Assembly: GCF_002803605.1 (NCBI RefSeq)
Contig: NZ_PHRG01000001.1
Location: 756,819-820,818, forward strand
Reading direction: 5' to 3'
Source: Acinetobacter pseudolwoffii
GTDB lineage: Bacteria > Pseudomonadota > Gammaproteobacteria > Pseudomonadales > Moraxellaceae
Length of the DNA: 64,000 nt
Position 1 is the stretch's first letter. Each line of letters starts with the position of its first letter. Under the pieces are notes generated by a model. That model ran no database searches. It worked only from the letters and a program-made list of their open reading frames with translations, and was not told where the DNA came from. A program made the translations under genes and the position numbers. Positions 8,798 through 57,389 of this stretch are shown in pieces.

Positions 8798-9916
8798 ATG
8801 AGAGTAGGTCTGGTCGGTTGGCGCGGGATGGTCGGTTCCGTCCTAATGCAACGTATGGTTGAAGAGAATGATTTTGCTCATTTTGAGCCATTTTATTTCT
8901 CTACCAGTAATGCAGGCGGTGAAGCGCCAGCATTTGGTGGTAAGACTGCCCCAGCACTTATGGATGCATCAGATATTAACAGTCTGAAGCAGATGGATGT
9001 CATTATTACCTGTCAAGGTGGCGACTATACCTCTGAGGTTTTCCCGAAACTGAAAGCTGAAGGCTGGAATGGTTACTGGATTGATGCAGCATCGACCTTA
9101 CGTATGGATGATGAAGCCATCATCGTACTTGATCCGGTCAATATGCATGTGATCAAAGACGGTTTGGTAAAAGGCACCAAAACTTTTGTTGGCGGTAACT
9201 GTACGGTTTCCTTGATGTTGATGGGTCTAGGTGGTCTGTTCCAGAACAATCTGGTAGAATGGGCAACGTCTATGACCTATCAGGCAGCGTCTGGTGCGGG
9301 TGCGCAAAACATGCGTGAACTGATCAGCGGTATGGGTTATTTATACAATAACACCAAAGAATTACTCGATGATCCACGCTCTCCAATTCTGGATATCGAT
9401 TCGAGAATTGCTGAATTACAACGCGGTGAAGGCTTCCCATCCAGCAACTTCGGTGTGCCTTTGGCCGGTTCACTGATTCCTTATATCGACAAGCAACTGG
9501 AAAGCGGCCAGTCGAAAGAAGAGTGGAAAGGCCAGGTTGAAACCAACAAGATTCTGGGCAACCAGCAGATCGTGCCGATTGATGGTCACTGTGTGCGTAT
9601 TGGTGCCATGCGTTGCCACTCTCAGGCATTGACGCTAAAACTGCGTAAAGACGTGCCTCTGGATGAAATCGAAGACATCATTGCACGTGCCAATGACTGG
9701 TCTAAAGTGGTTCCGAATACCCGTGAAGCCTCGATGACTGACCTGACTCCAGTTGCAGTGACAGGTACGTTATCGGTTCCAGTGGGTCGTCTGCGCAAGC
9801 TCAACATGGGTAAAGAATACTTGGGTGCATTCACTGTCGGTGACCAATTGCTTTGGGGCGCTGCTGAACCATTACGCCGTATGCTGCGCATCCTGATTGA
9901 TTATAAAAACGTTTAA
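8798..9916 (+). CDS. asd: Aspartate-semialdehyde dehydrogenase, 372 aa
   Basis: Reduces aspartyl-4-phosphate to aspartate semialdehyde with NADPH, a step shared by lysine/diaminopimelate, threonine and methionine synthesis. The N-terminal Rossmann motif is [15 protein letters not shown]. The active-site cysteine lies in [12 protein letters not shown] and the catalytic histidine region is [17 protein letters not shown]. The length equals the gammaproteobacterial enzyme (about 370). The frame is open 23 codons upstream, but the ATG at 8798 starts at the family's [10 protein letters not shown] and has a GAGGCAAAG ribosome site. It precedes fimV and truA, as in Pseudomonas. Confidence 0.97.
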
Positions 9917-9939
9917 TATCCCGAGATGGATATAAAACA

Positions 9940-9970
9940 AAAAGCCGATCTTTATTGATCGGCTTTTTTA
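9940..9970 (+). terminator. Rho-independent terminator of asd
   Basis: The stem AAAAGCCGATC/GATCGGCTTTT has a 6-base loop and a T run 24 bases after the asd stop. It separates asd from the fimV pair. Confidence 0.9.
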
Positions 9971-10060
9971 TGTAACTATTGCGTAAGTATTTTACAAAAA
10001 AGAAACATCCCGTTAATCTATAATTTTCGCTATGCGATAATGACTGAGCTCACAATTAAG

Positions 10061-11635
10061 ATGACTGTATATAACAAATTAAAGCTTGCCATTTTAGCCA
10101 TTGTTGCTTCACAGAATATTTATGCGATTAACGTAGATCCGGTTCAGATCCAGTCTGCGCCTGGAGAGTTACTCTATGCTGAAATGACCTTTCGACAATC
10201 TGATATGAATTTACCGATTGAGGTGAGTCTGGCTTCGCCTGAAGATTTAATCTCGATGGGTGCATCACATCAACCGCCTGGTCATCTGAACTTTTTCACC
10301 CGGCGTAGTAGTAATGGCACCGGAGTCATTACCATTACATCGTCTCGACCAATAACCGATCGGGAACTGAATATCATTGTCAAAATTAAGGAAGGCAATG
10401 CTGCACGTTTGCAACATATCCGCACGCCTTTGCAAGCGAAAACCGATTTATTAAAAGCTAGTCTAAAACAGAATGAACGCCCACTTGCGCCAGTTGTCAT
10501 GGTCAGTGAAAAAGATATTGCTTTAAACCTGCCAGTGACTACCCATTACAACAGCTCTCCAGCCACTTCAAATAAGCAACCGGTTTTAGAAAAGCCGCTG
10601 GCTGTGCAACATGTTAGTCCGCCGACATTGTCTAGCAGTTCAATTCCTCAAGCTACACTCGCGCCAGCAGCACCATCGATTCCGGCGCAATCTATCGCTC
10701 CTACAATTAAAAGCGAGTCTGTAACTGCTGCCAATACTCAAACTACGGTTAAAACTCCAGCATCGGCCACTTCAGATTCAACGCATCATACTTCGCAGCC
10801 GATTCCATCCTCGCCTGTTGTTACAGTAAAACCAACGCCGGCACAGTCTGTATCTGCAAATACGCCAGCGAGCAAGTTATCAGCAGATCATGTTTCTCCA
10901 GAGCAAAATAAAGTATCTATGCAAAAACCGGCTGAGACTGGTTCTGAACATCAAAGCGCTTCCAGCGATCCATTGGTCAAGAAATTTGCCGAGGAACAGG
11001 CCAGAAAATCGGCTGGCTCAACTCCTCCTGTACAGACCCCAGCTCCAATTACAACAAAAGTTACACCAGCCAAGAGTGCCTCAGCCCAAGCTCAACCCAC
11101 TTATATGGTTCAGTCCAATGAGTCGCTGTGGGGAATCGCATCACGAATTGCAGCAGAACAGCAACGTCCGGTTAATGAAGTGATGCAGCAAATCAAGCAA
11201 AACAATGAACATGCCTTTATCGGAGGAAATGCCAATCGTTTACGTAAAGGTGCAGCACTGAATTTAGCTATGATGAGTACTGTAACTGCTCCGATCAAAG
11301 TCACCGCCGCCAAGCAGACACAGGCACCTTCTCAGCCTGCTACCAAAACTAAATACCGTCTGAATCAGGCTGAAATGAGTCTGGTTGCTGAGAACCAGCA
11401 CGATTCCGGACAGCTTTCTGCAAACCAGAACACAGAACACAATCAAACATCGAAGGAATTGTCATTAAAAGTTATGACAGCCCGAGAAAAAACCGTTAAA
11501 TTACAGAGAAACGTAACCGAATTAGAATTGGCACTCAATCAGAAGGATCACAGAATTCAATTATTAAATGCGCGTCTGGCCCAGCTGCAACAACAGCTTA
11601 AAGCCCAACAAGCAGATAAGAAGCCAGTTAATTAA
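10061..11635 (+). CDS. fimV: FimV N-terminal half: periplasmic LysM-containing protein, 524 aa
   Basis: FimV-type proteins act at the cell pole and in type IV pilus/secretin assembly. A signal peptide (residues 1-22, cleaved after NIYA) is followed by the FimV/TspA N-terminal beta domain (VDPVQIQSAPGELLYAEM; VSLASPEDLISMGAS; VITITSSRPITDRELNII). A Pro/Ser/Thr/Ala-rich linker of about 230 residues follows. Then come a LysM-like module (YMVQSNESLWGIASRIA) and a C-terminal coiled coil ending in LQQQLKAQQADKKPVN. No membrane segment or TPR part is present; those are in the next gene. The frame is open from 10040, but the ATG at 10061 opens directly into the signal peptide. Confidence 0.85.
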   Translation: MTVYNKLKLAILAIVASQNIYAINVDPVQIQSAPGELLYAEMTFRQSDMNLPIEVSLASPEDLISMGASHQPPGHLNFFTRRSSNGTGVITITSSRPITDRELNIIVKIKEGNAARLQHIRTPLQAKTDLLKASLKQNERPLAPVVMVSEKDIALNLPVTTHYNSSPATSNKQPVLEKPLAVQHVSPPTLSSSSIPQATLAPAAPSIPAQSIAPTIKSESVTAANTQTTVKTPASATSDSTHHTSQPIPSSPVVTVKPTPAQSVSANTPASKLSADHVSPEQNKVSMQKPAETGSEHQSASSDPLVKKFAEEQARKSAGSTPPVQTPAPITTKVTPAKSASAQAQPTYMVQSNESLWGIASRIAAEQQRPVNEVMQQIKQNNEHAFIGGNANRLRKGAALNLAMMSTVTAPIKVTAAKQTQAPSQPATKTKYRLNQAEMSLVAENQHDSGQLSANQNTEHNQTSKELSLKVMTAREKTVKLQRNVTELELALNQKDHRIQLLNARLAQLQQQLKAQQADKKPVN

Positions 11636-11702
11636 AAGTTACACATGACGATTTATTGGGATGAGTGAACATTGAATACACTCTATCCTCAAGGGGTAAA
11701 AC

Positions 11703-13013
11703 ATGCTGATTTATGTGATTCCATTAGTGATATTGATCATCGTATTAATTGTCGTCAAAAAACGACAAGATGCTCAAGAATCAGATAAAGCAAAAACTAA
11801 AACTGTAAAAGCGAAAAAACCTGGCTCTGCTTCAAAAACTGCCCCACAAAAAACCAAAGTAGTTGAGCCAGTCGGGGTCGCAAAAAAATCAGCAACGCCA
11901 TTATCCGCAGAAACGCGTAAAAAAATTGAAGGCCTGATTCAGGAACGTAATTTTTTTGCGGCCGAAGCTCAGATTAACCAGGCATTGAATCGCGACAATT
12001 CCCAGCATGAGCTCTATCTGCTGTTGTTAGATATTCATATCTTACAGAAAGATGAGTTTGCGATTTCACAACTGCTCAACCATATCCGTTCTTTAAATTT
12101 AGATGAGATTCTGGCGCAAGCTGAAGCCAAACAGCGTGAATTTGATCAATCTTTATCTGCTGTTCAAGATACGATTGATTTCCCAAGTGCACAGCTTAAA
12201 ACTTCATCTGTACAGGAAACCTCGGCATCTTCCGATGCCTTTGCTGATCTGGTCGCTCCCGCTCCTTCAAATGAGCAGGCATTTGAACAGTTGCAACAAG
12301 AGTTTCAACCAAGCAAGCCAGCTCCAGCAATTGAGCCTGTTGCGGATATTCAGCCACTTGAATTTAATTTTGAACCGACAACTACGCCGGTCATAGCGCC
12401 AAAATCTGAAGAAACTCCGGTACCTGCTGTAGATTTTGAATTTCAAGATACTTCATCTGCTGTTGTGCAAACTACACCTACGGCAGCAACAGAAACCGCA
12501 CCTGTTTTAGATTTTAAACTGGAATTGCAGCAGGCTGCTCCAGTAGAAACAGCGGCTGCTGTATCTGAAGAGATCAAGCCTCTGGATTTCTCATTTTCTA
12601 TAGGAACTCCAGCGCCTGTCGCCGAAAAAACCTCAGAACCAGCAATTGAGTTTGATCTGTCTAGTCTTTCTGCTGCTGCACCTGTGAGTGAATCTGCGAC
12701 ACAGACAGACCTTTCATCAGGCCTAGACTTTAAATTAGATCATGCAGAAACTAAACCTGCTGCAACAGGTGTTACTTTCGACATTCCTGCTACATCAGTT
12801 CAAACAGCCACAGACCAGCATGATCCACTGGTACAATCTTTCCCGGAATTACTGGACATCAATGAGGCCAGTCTGAATCTGGATCTTGCGCAGCAATATA
12901 TTCAGCTCGGTGCCTATGTTGCCGCACGTGAGATCATTGCAGAGCGAGAAGCTGAATATACGGCCGAGCAACAGCAACGCGCAGAGCAATTACTGAATCA
13001 AATCGCATCTTGA
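11703..13013 (+). CDS. FimV C-terminal half: membrane anchor plus FimV C-terminal domain, 436 aa
   Basis: It starts with one membrane segment (IYVIPLVILIIVLIVV) and a lysine-rich cytoplasmic stretch. Helical TPR-like sequence follows (IEGLIQERNFFAAEAQINQA), then a 250-residue acidic Pro/Ala/Glu linker with repeated LDFxF and LEFNF-type blocks. The end is SLNLDLAQQYIQLGAYVAAR, then a helical tail to AEQLLNQIAS, which is the FimV C-terminal domain pattern. It sits 67 bp after the N-terminal half with its own AAGGGG ribosome site. Together the two rebuild the domain order of a single Pseudomonas FimV. A role in polar organisation or pili is inferred from the family. Confidence 0.8.
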   Translation: MLIYVIPLVILIIVLIVVKKRQDAQESDKAKTKTVKAKKPGSASKTAPQKTKVVEPVGVAKKSATPLSAETRKKIEGLIQERNFFAAEAQINQALNRDNSQHELYLLLLDIHILQKDEFAISQLLNHIRSLNLDEILAQAEAKQREFDQSLSAVQDTIDFPSAQLKTSSVQETSASSDAFADLVAPAPSNEQAFEQLQQEFQPSKPAPAIEPVADIQPLEFNFEPTTTPVIAPKSEETPVPAVDFEFQDTSSAVVQTTPTAATETAPVLDFKLELQQAAPVETAAAVSEEIKPLDFSFSIGTPAPVAEKTSEPAIEFDLSSLSAAAPVSESATQTDLSSGLDFKLDHAETKPAATGVTFDIPATSVQTATDQHDPLVQSFPELLDINEASLNLDLAQQYIQLGAYVAAREIIAEREAEYTAEQQQRAEQLLNQIAS

Positions 13014-13033
13014 TGCATTTCGATTTACACTAA

Positions 13034-13060
13034 AGCAGTCAAGGGTTGGCTGCTTTTTTT
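13034..13060 (+). terminator. Terminator of the fimV pair, touching the next start codon
   Basis: AGCAGTCAA pairs with TTGGCTGCT (one G-U pair) around a GGG loop, followed by seven T. The T run ends at 13060 and the asparaginase ATG begins at 13061. Confidence 0.85.
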
Positions 13061-14029
13061 ATGATGAAAAATATTGCATTAATTTATATGGGTGGCACAT
13101 TCGGCTGTGTCGGCGATCCACTTGCCCCGATGTCTGCGGATTTATTTATTCCCAAGCTCGAACAGATACTCGCAGACCAATATTTCGTTGAATGCCACCG
13201 CGCACCAGCCATTAAAGACAGTAGTGCCTGTACAGCCGCGGACTGGCTGCAATTGGTGCAGTTTATTCAAGAACTACAATCTCGAAAGATCCAATATTTT
13301 GTGATTATTCACGGTACAGATACGCTGAGTTATGCCAGTGCAGTCCTGGCACATTTTCTCGGCAACTCGGCACATGTGGTACTGACTGGTAGTCAATATC
13401 CGCTGCTGAATGCTCAAGGCAATGAGCAGCGCGAATTTAGTGATGCGCTGGATAATCTGAGATTCGCCCTGGATTCTGTCAGTATGTGTACCGCAGGGGT
13501 CTATCTGGCTTTTCATCATCAACTAATGCATGCCCAGACGGCACTCAAACAGCATACTACCGAGTTAAATGCCTTTTCAGGTCTTGAGGCCAATATTGCA
13601 ATCCAAACCAGTCAACAATGTTATCAAATCGAAGCTGAAGATATTAAGAAAGCGGCTGGATTTAACTGCATGAGTATCATGATACAACCGATTGATCTGG
13701 CCCAGCAACTGAACAACCTGCACAGCTTATTAGCCCGACCACCGCATTTTTTATTTCTGCAAGGTTTTGGCACGGGTAATCTCGCTGTCAATGAGGCCCT
13801 GATTGCACTTATTGATCAACTCTATGACCAAGGCTGTATCTCTGTACTGACCACCCAGGTGCCTTTTGGCGCGACAGATCAGCGCTATGCCATTGCAGAA
13901 TGGGTCAATCACTGCAAAATTCTGCTGAATGAAAGTTATGGCCATGCGGATCTGTATGCAAAAGCCCTGAAAATGTATTTACAATACGACACTGTAGAGC
14001 AATGGCATCGTCATTGGTACGATCAATAA
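13061..14029 (+). CDS. Asparaginase (type I-like, cytoplasmic), 322 aa
   Basis: Hydrolyses asparagine to aspartate and ammonia. Both threonine motifs of the family are present: IALIYMGGTFG near the N terminus and VIIHGTDTLSYAS at about residue 85. GSQYPLLNAQGN and a C-terminal LQGFGTGNL block also fit. There is no signal peptide, so it is cytoplasmic. The ATG at 13061 (or 13064) follows the terminator of the upstream operon without a gap, so the usual ribosome site is absent. AAGGG in the terminator loop is the only candidate. truA starts 15 bp after its stop, so the two are probably co-transcribed. Confidence 0.88.
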   Translation: MMKNIALIYMGGTFGCVGDPLAPMSADLFIPKLEQILADQYFVECHRAPAIKDSSACTAADWLQLVQFIQELQSRKIQYFVIIHGTDTLSYASAVLAHFLGNSAHVVLTGSQYPLLNAQGNEQREFSDALDNLRFALDSVSMCTAGVYLAFHHQLMHAQTALKQHTTELNAFSGLEANIAIQTSQQCYQIEAEDIKKAAGFNCMSIMIQPIDLAQQLNNLHSLLARPPHFLFLQGFGTGNLAVNEALIALIDQLYDQGCISVLTTQVPFGATDQRYAIAEWVNHCKILLNESYGHADLYAKALKMYLQYDTVEQWHRHWYDQ

Positions 14030-14044
14030 GGTTTTGAGGTCATT

Positions 14045-14842
14045 ATGCAACGTTTTGCGGTGGGAATTGAGTTTTGTGGGATGCATTATCGGGGATGGCA
14101 GACTCAACAGCCGGGTGTTGCAAGTGTGCAGGAAACCATTGAAAAGGTACTGAGCCGGGTTGCCGATCAACCGATTAGCCTACATGGTGCCGGACGTACC
14201 GATGCGGGGGTACATGCGACCAATATGGTGGCACATTTTGATAGCAATGCCATTCGTTCTGAACGTGGCTGGCTGATGGGTTGCAATAGCCAGTTGCCCA
14301 AAGATATCTCGATTCAGTGGATCAAAGAGATGGATCACAGCTTCCATGCCCGCTTTAAGGCTCAGGCACGCCGTTACCGCTATGTGGTCTATAATCATCC
14401 TGTGCGACCTGCCTTGCTGCATAAACAGGTCACCCATGTCTATGCTCCACTCGATATTGAACAGATGATGCTGGCTGCGAAAAAGTTTGAAGGTACACAT
14501 AATTTTGAAAGCTTCCGTGCTGCAGCCTGCCAATCCAATCAACCGGTGCGCCATGTCAGCCACTGCCGTCTGATTCAGCATGGTCAATATCTGGTACTGG
14601 ATATTCAGGCCGATGGCTTTCTGCATCATATGGTGCGTAATATCATGGGCTGCCTACTGGAAATTGGTCAGGGCATGTATGCTGCCGATCATATTGATAG
14701 TATTTTCGCGGCCGAAGACCGCAAAGCTGCTGGCGTGACTGCGCCTGCCGATGGTTTATATTTTATTCATGCCGACTATCCGGAGCAGTTTGAATTGCCT
14801 AAATTACCGTTGGGGCCGCATTGGCTGAATCTGCCGGAATAA
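14045..14842 (+). CDS. truA: tRNA pseudouridine(38-40) synthase, 265 aa
   Basis: Converts uridines 38-40 of the anticodon arm to pseudouridine in many tRNAs. The family motif with the catalytic aspartate is LHGAGRTDAGVHATN at about residue 53. RARRYRYVV-type sequence (QARRYRYVVYNH) and DGFLHHMVRNIMG near the C terminus are also diagnostic. The length matches E. coli TruA (270). It sits downstream of asd and fimV as in Pseudomonas, with the asparaginase gene interposed. Confidence 0.96.
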   Translation: MQRFAVGIEFCGMHYRGWQTQQPGVASVQETIEKVLSRVADQPISLHGAGRTDAGVHATNMVAHFDSNAIRSERGWLMGCNSQLPKDISIQWIKEMDHSFHARFKAQARRYRYVVYNHPVRPALLHKQVTHVYAPLDIEQMMLAAKKFEGTHNFESFRAAACQSNQPVRHVSHCRLIQHGQYLVLDIQADGFLHHMVRNIMGCLLEIGQGMYAADHIDSIFAAEDRKAAGVTAPADGLYFIHADYPEQFELPKLPLGPHWLNLPE

Positions 14843-57083: not shown

Positions 57084-57159
57084 GGGCCGTTAGCTCAGTT
57101 GGTAGAGCAGTGGACTTTTAATCCATTGGTCCCGCGTTCGAGTCGCGGACGGCCCACCA
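57084..57159 (+). tRNA. tRNA-Lys (anticodon UUU), copy 1
   Basis: 76 nt including the encoded CCA. The acceptor arms GGGCCGT and ACGGCCC pair, the D-loop is AGCTCAGTTGGTAGAGC, the anticodon loop is CTTTTAA with anticodon UUU, and the T-arm is CGCGTTCGAGTCGCG. Identical to the next two copies. Confidence 0.97.
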
Positions 57160-57179
57160 TTTCTTTGATATCCCTTGAT

Positions 57180-57255
57180 GGGCCGTTAGCTCAGTTGGTA
57201 GAGCAGTGGACTTTTAATCCATTGGTCCCGCGTTCGAGTCGCGGACGGCCCACCA
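57180..57255 (+). tRNA. tRNA-Lys (anticodon UUU), copy 2
   Basis: Base-for-base identical to copy 1, 20 bp downstream, with encoded CCA. Confidence 0.97.
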
Positions 57256-57313
57256 TCATTCTAAAACATCAGTTTTAGAAATCTCAATCAAAGTCATTTT
57301 GATTACCCAGAAT

Positions 57314-57389
57314 GGGCCGTTAGCTCAGTTGGTAGAGCAGTGGACTTTTAATCCATTGGTCCCGCGTTCGAGTCGCGGACGGCCCACCA
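57314..57389 (+). tRNA. tRNA-Lys (anticodon UUU), copy 3
   Basis: Base-for-base identical to copies 1 and 2, 58 bp after copy 2, with encoded CCA. No terminator is obvious downstream. Confidence 0.97.

What the first reader, a model, noticed from the sequence alone, without database searches (positions are those of the whole stretch)
10061..13013. FimV is split into two adjacent genes at the membrane boundary
The first gene has the FimV/TspA N-terminal domain and LysM-like module and stops after a coiled coil. The second starts exactly at the membrane segment and carries the acidic linker and FimV C-terminal domain. Each has its own start, and the second has an AAGGGG ribosome site, with 67 bp between them. 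In Pseudomonas one protein crosses the membrane, so a split would separate peptidoglycan binding from the cytoplasmic polar scaffold. The neighbours (asd before, truA after) match Pseudomonas, so this is the fimV locus.
Basis: partly seen in the sequence, partly recalled or inferred. Interest (0 to 1): 0.6.

Follow-up and report, generated by a model that had tools for sequence, protein, structure and literature searches.

The report
FimV split into two conserved genes
In Acinetobacter and its close relatives a protein that usually spans the inner membrane and tells the cell where to build its pili is made as two separate proteins, one outside and one inside the membrane, and the outside half, which published work describes as missing, is still there as the gene next door.

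Summary
Confirmed. The window (an Acinetobacter) encodes the periplasmic half of FimV (10061-11635: signal peptide, Ig-like domain, LysM, coiled coil) and, 67 bp later, the membrane-plus-cytoplasmic half (11703-13013), each with its own start. It is not an assembly error: of 119 Acinetobacter genomes the N-half matched in 113 and the C-half in 115, never in one listed frame; 81 of 85 junctions read have a 2-81 bp gap, and the N-half is under purifying selection. Related Moraxellaceae share the split; deeper ones keep one gene, as do 90 of 109 matched genomes of the order by frame length. Alkanindiges, sister to Acinetobacter, has a fused gene with an internal signal-peptide-like segment: re-fusion or repeated fission. 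Papers call the Acinetobacter protein truncated, lacking its periplasmic domain; that domain is the upstream gene. Lead: genomes without the N-half tend to lack PilQ AMIN domains (15 of 17 have fewer than two; 21 of 21 with it have two), but AMIN changed only four times on the tree, so this is not significant. Best reading: the periplasmic half serves the PilQ secretin, the other half is the Pil-Chp scaffold, and they are no longer joined.

The parts
8798..9916 (+). asd, aspartate-semialdehyde dehydrogenase (upstream neighbour)
   Evidence: TIGR01745 E 4.6e-190
9939..9968 (.). terminator-like hairpin between asd and the N-half
   Evidence: pattern scan, 12 pairs, reported on the minus strand; the scan found 6 such sites where shuffles give 3.7 (sd 2.0), so weak evidence
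10061..11635 (+). fimV N-half gene: secreted periplasmic protein, 524 aa
   Evidence: PF25800 E 1.3e-9; TIGR03505 E 4.6e-11; matches in 113 of 119 Acinetobacter genomes; hhalign to residues 3-379 of whole FimV
10061..10126 (+). signal peptide, cleavage expected after invariant Ala22
   Evidence: sequence; A22 invariant in the 45 N-halves of alignment A1; cleavage inferred, no signal-peptide predictor was run
10124..10429 (+). Ig-like domain (FimV_N), residues 22-123
   Evidence: AlphaFold2 beta-sandwich, pLDDT about 88-96 by block; weak Ig-fold matches in PDB, best E 7e-4
11096..11266 (+). LysM-like FimV core, residues 346-402
   Evidence: TIGR03505; AlphaFold2 pLDDT about 90
11444..11620 (+). 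single long helix / coiled coil, residues 462-520, at the C-terminal end of the N-half
   Evidence: AlphaFold2 H462-520; L506, A507, L513 invariant; coiled coil inferred
11636..11702 (+). 67-bp intergenic gap with AAGGGG ribosome site at 11691-11696
   Evidence: AAGGGG within 20 nt of the chosen start in 76 of 87 unique Acinetobacter genomes, against 0.23% of background windows
11703..13013 (+). fimV C-half gene: inner-membrane anchor plus cytoplasmic domain, 436 aa
   Evidence: TIGR03504; profile hit to 4mal FimV TPR3 E 1.3e-15; matches in 115 of 119 genomes
11715..11780 (+). transmembrane helix, residues 5-26, ending in lysines (cytoplasmic side, inferred)
   Evidence: helix in the model; hydropathy
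11907..12167 (+). TPR-like helical domain, residues 69-155
   Evidence: AlphaFold2 pLDDT mostly above 90; hhalign to residues 496-597 of whole FimV
12186..12800 (+). disordered linker, residues 162-366, acidic by eye
   Evidence: pLDDT mostly below 50
12864..13007 (+). C-terminal FimV TPR, residues 388-435
   Evidence: 4mal/4mbq are the six best Foldseek hits, 39-44% identity, though at E 0.04-0.22
13032..13056 (+). terminator-like hairpin after the C-half
   Evidence: pattern scan, 11 pairs; weak evidence as above
13064..14029 (+). asparaginase-like gene
   Evidence: PF00710 E 2.9e-29
14045..14842 (+). truA
   Evidence: TIGR00071 E 8e-65

Best explanation
An ancestral one-piece FimV was cut by gene fission in the linker between its periplasmic coiled coil and its membrane helix, and both pieces were kept as separate genes side by side. 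The first piece is exported by its own signal peptide and works as a soluble periplasmic, peptidoglycan-binding (LysM) coiled-coil protein, most likely at the PilQ secretin through its AMIN domains. The second piece sits in the inner membrane by its N-terminal helix with its TPR domains in the cytoplasm, where it gathers FimL/PilG and places type IV pili. Shown here: fission, conservation across the clade, purifying selection on both halves, domain content, partial co-loss with PilQ AMIN. From published work: the A. baylyi C-half-like protein binds FimL and places pili. Inferred: topology, absence of a physical link between the halves, peptidoglycan binding and the secretin role of the N-half.
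For: Separate frames: C-half matched in 115 and N-half in 113 of 119 Acinetobacter genomes, and the longest frame in any listed row is 645 aa, too short for both (the weaker matches were not all listed). Junction read in 87 unique genomes: AAGGGG before the C-half in 76; 82 have no other start codon between the preceding in-frame stop and the chosen start; of the 85 with an N-half, 81 have a gap of 2-81 bp. The chosen start was by script an ATG near the hydrophobic peak, so ATG in 86 of 87 is partly by construction. N-half dN/dS 0.10-0.25 in 18 of 18 chosen pairs, C-half 0.10-0.37. hhalign of each half to whole FimV. Split groups lie inside one 100/100 clade of the species tree and whole-gene groups outside it, except Alkanindiges. 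Highest KD19 after residue 45 is 1.42 in 61 N-halves. PilQ AMIN below two in 15 of 17 genomes without an N-half and in 0 of 21 with one. Ellison et al. 2022, PMC9596432 (passages): ACIAD0477, similar to the FimV C-terminus, is the top protein co-precipitated with FimL, and its deletion disperses pili.
Against: G035 and G068 lost the N-half but keep two AMIN domains. On supported branches only 4 independent pairs differ in the N-half; AMIN goes the same way in 3.4 of them on average and never the other way, sign test p 0.125-0.25, so the link is not significant once relatedness is counted. In A. baumannii a fimV deletion (ABD1_03970; I cannot tell which half) did not change transformation (PMC8811193, passages), which speaks against a strong secretin defect if it was the N-half. 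Both halves evolve much faster than asd (dN/dS 0-0.07 in the same pairs). I saw no interaction data for the N-half.
Confidence: 0.7

Rival explanations
1. The two halves still act as one FimV: they find each other, directly or through a third protein such as PilNOP, so the split is functionally silent.
For: Adjacent and in order in the 85 junctions with both, both kept in nearly all genomes; the coil at the end of the N-half holds three of its twelve invariant residues.
Against: The C-half has only a few residues before its membrane helix and the N-half has no membrane-strength segment, so little periplasmic contact surface is left. The C-half persists without an N-half in G031 (by eye), G035, G068, G215, G219 and G126.
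Confidence: 0.17
2. The N-half is an evolutionary leftover and FimV in Acinetobacter is simply truncated, as published.
For: Ellison et al. 2022 (PMC9596432, passages) state that A. baylyi FimV lacks the periplasmic domain; the N-half is absent or decaying in a few genomes.
Against: 113 of 119 genomes have it; dN/dS 0.10-0.25 in 18 of 18 pairs; Ig-like, LysM and helix intact in the model.
Confidence: 0.08
3. A full-length FimV is still made by stop-codon readthrough or frameshifting.
For: Four-base overlap (g8, one g12 genome) or 2-bp gap (G013, G030) in some lineages.
Against: In 81 junctions the gap length is spread over the three frames (30, 26 and 25), so the frame relation is not conserved; in the window an in-frame TAA lies two codons before the C-half start; the C-half has a conserved ribosome site.
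Confidence: 0.03
4. Assembly error or recent mutation in this genome.
For: None found.
Against: Same two-gene layout in 85 of 87 Acinetobacter genomes read and in other genus groups.
Confidence: 0.01

Closest known systems
FimV of Pseudomonas aeruginosa / P. putida
   Same: Signal peptide, Ig-like domain, LysM, membrane helix, acidic linker and C-terminal TPR in the same order (PMC12918733, passages); asd and truA nearby (Pseudomonas neighbourhood recalled; seen here around whole fimV of related genera).
   Different: One polypeptide of 911-919 aa there (PMC12918733); two polypeptides here, with the linker before the membrane gone.
A. baylyi FimV, ACIAD0477 (Ellison et al. 2022, PMC9596432)
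   Same: Corresponds to the C-half: an inner-membrane protein similar to the FimV C-terminus, binding FimL and placing pili along the long axis.
   Different: The paper calls it truncated and lacking the periplasmic domain and, in the passages I read, does not mention an upstream gene with that domain. I did not identify A. baylyi itself among my genomes, so the gene upstream of ACIAD0477 was not read.
HubP (Vibrio, Shewanella) and TspA (Neisseria)
   Same: LysM, membrane helix, acidic cytoplasmic region and FimV-type C-terminal TPR (HubP, from PMC12918733; TspA is named there as a homologue).
   Different: Single polypeptides (TspA recalled); not compared by sequence here.
TsaP
   Same: LysM protein associated with the PilQ secretin (PMC8811193 passage), a possible functional parallel to the N-half.
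   Different: A different gene; not compared by sequence here.

Membership tests
FimV/HubP polar landmark protein | FimV_N Ig-like domain | tested here: met
   PF25800 38.6 bits against cut-off 27, on the N-half; model
FimV/HubP polar landmark protein | LysM-like FimV core | tested here: met
   TIGR03505 42.4 bits by hmmscan, just under the 43.45 cut-off, 45.4 bits and over it in the genome search
FimV/HubP polar landmark protein | Single transmembrane helix with cytoplasmic C-terminus | tested here: met
   On the C-half, residues 5-26 followed by basic residues; orientation inferred from charges only
FimV/HubP polar landmark protein | Acidic disordered cytoplasmic region | tested here: met
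   Residues 162-366 of the C-half, low pLDDT; acidity judged by eye
FimV/HubP polar landmark protein | C-terminal FimV TPR | tested here: met
   4mal E 1.3e-15 with the C-half profile; TIGR03504 25.4 bits by hmmscan, under the cut-off of 30.65, 30.6 and 31 with neighbours in the genome search, over it
FimV/HubP polar landmark protein | All domains on one polypeptide crossing the membrane | tested here: not met
   Two genes, in this genome and in its relatives
FimV/HubP polar landmark protein | Polar localisation and binding of FimL/PilG | not testable with these tools
   For A. baylyi ACIAD0477, published: long-axis line and FimL co-precipitation (PMC9596432)

The most novel reading that the evidence does not exclude
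FimV in Acinetobacter and its sister groups is a two-protein system: the freed periplasmic half is a dedicated assembly or anchoring factor for the AMIN domains of PilQ, the freed cytoplasmic half has lost its peptidoglycan tether, and that loss is what lets pili be placed along the side of the cell instead of the pole. Alkanindiges later re-fused the two genes, leaving a signal-peptide relic inside the protein.
Probability: 0.35. Interest if true: 0.75.

Novelty: new variant of a known kind. Interest (0 to 1): 0.62.

Why it matters
A published model links the side-wall placement of pili in A. baylyi to a FimV that lost its periplasmic domain. In the genus that domain is still encoded next door and is under selection, so the model needs the missing gene tested. 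The split is a natural separation-of-function experiment for a major polar landmark protein: it makes directly testable which duties of FimV need the periplasmic part, which need the cytoplasmic part, and whether a physical link through the membrane is what makes FimV polar. The partial co-loss with PilQ AMIN domains gives a concrete partner to test.

Tried and rejected
The first species tree was wrong because I translated minus-strand loci on the wrong strand; it was redone. I considered internal translation initiation in the fused Alkanindiges gene and set it aside: the candidate start codon is TTG, CTG and ATG in the three genomes read, and I saw no ribosome site by eye. I considered cleavage at the internal signal-peptide-like segment there; topology argues against it and I could not test it. 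Promoter scan of 9850-13150: four matches, below the shuffle mean of 6.5, none inside the 67-bp gap; three lie in the end of the N-half.

Papers. ACIAD0476: none. ACIAD0477: one, PMC9596432. FimV with split and Acinetobacter: four, of which I opened PMC12918733. FimV with Acinetobacter and twitching: 30, of which I also opened passages of PMC8088505 and PMC8811193. FimV with Moraxella: seven, listing only. FimV with gene fission: none. FimV with Psychrobacter: two, listing only, not about this. Two further listings. Leong et al. 2017 on A. baylyi (PMC5542475) does not hold FimV, TspA or LysM. The library holds open-licence PMC papers only, and supplements could not be read, so a description elsewhere is possible.

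Rows dropped from the PilQ count: G126 and G169 (no PilQ found), G143 (none), G132 (PilQ cut by a contig end), G030 (matches on two contigs). In one search, of 36 genomes chosen mostly for having an N-half, 35 have a PilQ and 33 of these have frames of 697-848 aa; the other two are G132 and G030. AMIN was counted by Pfam in 38 genomes that I picked, not in all of those searched. The eleven g11 genomes without FimV are those that the listing showed; seven further genomes without a core match were not listed there.
Full report
WHAT IS THERE. The window carries asd (8798-9916), a 524-aa ORF (10061-11635), a 67-bp gap, a 436-aa ORF (11703-13013), an asparaginase-like gene (13064-14029) and truA (14045-14842), all on the plus strand. 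The first ORF matches the FimV Ig-like domain and the FimV LysM core; the second matches the FimV C-terminal TPR. A profile of C-halves finds the crystal structure of P. aeruginosa FimV TPR3 at E 1.3e-15. This genome gave a single match in each search. Terminator-like hairpins lie after asd and after the C-half, but the scan finds such sites at 6 against 3.7 (sd 2.0) in shuffles, so a two-gene transcript is plausible, not shown.

ANATOMY. AlphaFold2 of the N-half: N-terminal helix (signal peptide), Ig-like sandwich 22-123, LysM 346-402, one helix 462-520 ending four residues before the C-terminus. The C-half: membrane helix 5-26, TPR-like bundle 69-155, disordered linker, C-terminal TPR 388-435. 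Mean pLDDT is only 67.5 and 65.5; the confident parts are these domains. hhalign places the N-half on residues 3-379 of one-piece FimV of related genera and the C-half TPR-like domain on 496-597. In that reference protein the membrane helix is at 434-452 by hydropathy, so what is missing here is the roughly 55-residue linker between coil and membrane. Among 61 N-halves the highest 19-residue hydropathy after residue 45 is 1.42, below the 1.6 that I used for membrane segments.

CONSERVATION IN ACINETOBACTER. Searching 119 genomes of the genus, the C-half matches in 115 and the N-half in 113; no listed frame exceeds 645 aa, and the weakest matches were not listed. I read the junction in 87 unique genomes (94 loci, 7 of them repeats). 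AAGGGG lies within 20 nt before the C-half start in 76, against 0.23% of background windows. My script chose the start as an ATG near the hydrophobic peak, so ATG in 86 is partly built in; independently, 82 of 87 have no other start codon between the preceding in-frame stop and that start. Of the 85 with an N-half, the gap is 2-81 bp in 81, median over all 66, spread over all three frames (30, 26, 25). The four exceptions are L130 (107 bp, shortened halves), L171 (281 bp) and L029 and L277 (341 and 500 bp), whose N-half frames look broken. L131 (G034) gave no C-half start and was left out; its C-half is in two pieces. In 18 chosen pairs the N-half has dN/dS 0.10-0.25 and the C-half 0.10-0.37, asd 0-0.07; several dS values exceed 1, so these are rough. 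Both halves are maintained but fast-evolving genes.

WHERE THE SPLIT AROSE. Across 149 Moraxellaceae genomes, FimV in one frame (802-1048 aa, the 802 at a contig end) occurs in genus groups g3, g4, g5, g6, g10, g13 and g14, a short one-frame form (546-581 aa) in g2, and the split in Acinetobacter, g7, g8, g9, g11 and g12; g15 and g16 are undecided. In the order, the C-terminal model matches 109 of 115 genomes; the best match lies in a frame of 750-1304 aa in 90 and in a shorter one in 19, which include this genome, one g9 and one g2; the other short ones were not examined, so further splits or contig ends are possible. A tree from rpoB, secA, asd and truA puts all split groups and the two undecided ones in one clade with full support, but also Alkanindiges (g10, named), sister to Acinetobacter at 99/99. 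Holding the split and undecided rows together without Alkanindiges is rejected, p 0.00026. So either fission happened more than once or Alkanindiges re-fused.

THE ALKANINDIGES CLUE. Its fused protein carries, just before the membrane helix, a basic stretch, a hydrophobic stretch and an AxA-like end that look like a signal peptide. In the three g12 loci read, the separate C-half begins with its own signal-peptide-like segment followed by the membrane helix, and in g8 and two deep Acinetobacter (G013, G030) the N-half ends in a weakly hydrophobic tail just at the C-half start. I favour one early fission and a later re-fusion that stranded the signal peptide, about 60:40, by hand parsimony only.

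LITERATURE. Ellison et al. 2022 (PMC9596432; passages, abstract and outline) could not find FimV by bioinformatics, found ACIAD0477 as the top FimL co-precipitant, similar to the FimV C-terminus, and showed that its deletion disperses pili that otherwise lie in a line along the cell; they call it truncated, lacking the periplasmic domain, and suggest that truncation influenced its role. The P. putida FimV paper (PMC12918733; [quoted passage not shown] Neither, in the passages I read, mentions a separate gene with that domain; I read neither paper whole, nor supplements. A. baumannii tables list one hypothetical protein as fimV (PMC8088505, PMC8811193; passages); its deletion did not change transformation (PMC8811193); which half it is I cannot tell.

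A FUNCTIONAL LEAD. Some genomes lack the N-half: in Acinetobacter G035 and G068 keep the C-half, G031 keeps a divergent 261-aa C-half-like ORF recognised by eye, and G093 and G101 have neither; in g9 G215, G219 and G126 keep only the C-half; in ten g11 genomes asd is followed by the asparaginase-like gene with no FimV-like ORF between. PilQ was found in 29 of 31 genomes searched; the two without, G126 and G169, both lack the N-half. Pfam counts of the PilQ AMIN domain: two in 21 of 21 genomes with an N-half, whether fused (one), split or decaying; among 17 without it, none in 13, one in 2 (G093, G215), two in 2 (G035, G068). On the PilQ tree the N-half changes at least 6 times and AMIN at least 4. 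With 4 supported independent pairs AMIN goes the same way in 3.4 on average, sign test p 0.125-0.25; the naive Fisher value of 9e-9 ignores relatedness. I treat this as a lead that fits the proposed role of P. aeruginosa FimV in secretin assembly (as described in PMC9596432, citing Wehbi 2011), not as proof.

MECHANISM. The simplest reading is division of labour: a soluble periplasmic LysM coiled-coil protein acting on or near PilQ, and a membrane-anchored cytoplasmic scaffold acting with Pil-Chp. With a few residues left outside, the C-half has little to hold the N-half with, so direct coupling is unlikely, though a bridge through another pilus protein is not excluded.

VERDICT. It is a new variant of a known protein, shared by Acinetobacter and related genus groups, with a testable partner.

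Noticed in passing
L139, L140, L146 (Alkanindiges fimV): Fused FimV with an internal signal-peptide-like segment directly before the membrane helix.
   Followed up: partly
L095:5999-9117 (minus strand, genus group g2, G157): Two tandem FimV-like genes overlapping by 4 bp: one with signal peptide and a C-terminal membrane segment, the next a short one-piece FimV.
   Followed up: no
L360-L365, L401-L404 (g11); L366, L367 (Acinetobacter G031, G101); L370 (g9 G219): PilQ secretins with no AMIN domain by Pfam, in genomes lacking the FimV N-half.
   Followed up: partly
L131 (G034) and L130 (G103): fimV pair that seems to decay: C-half in two pieces in G034, N-half apparently without its coiled coil in both.
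   Followed up: partly
genome G169 (g11), no locus of interest: A single-contig genome listed as 100% complete in which neither FimV model, PilQ nor asd gave a match.
   Followed up: no
window 57084-57389: Three tandem tRNA-Lys (TTT) genes.
   Followed up: no
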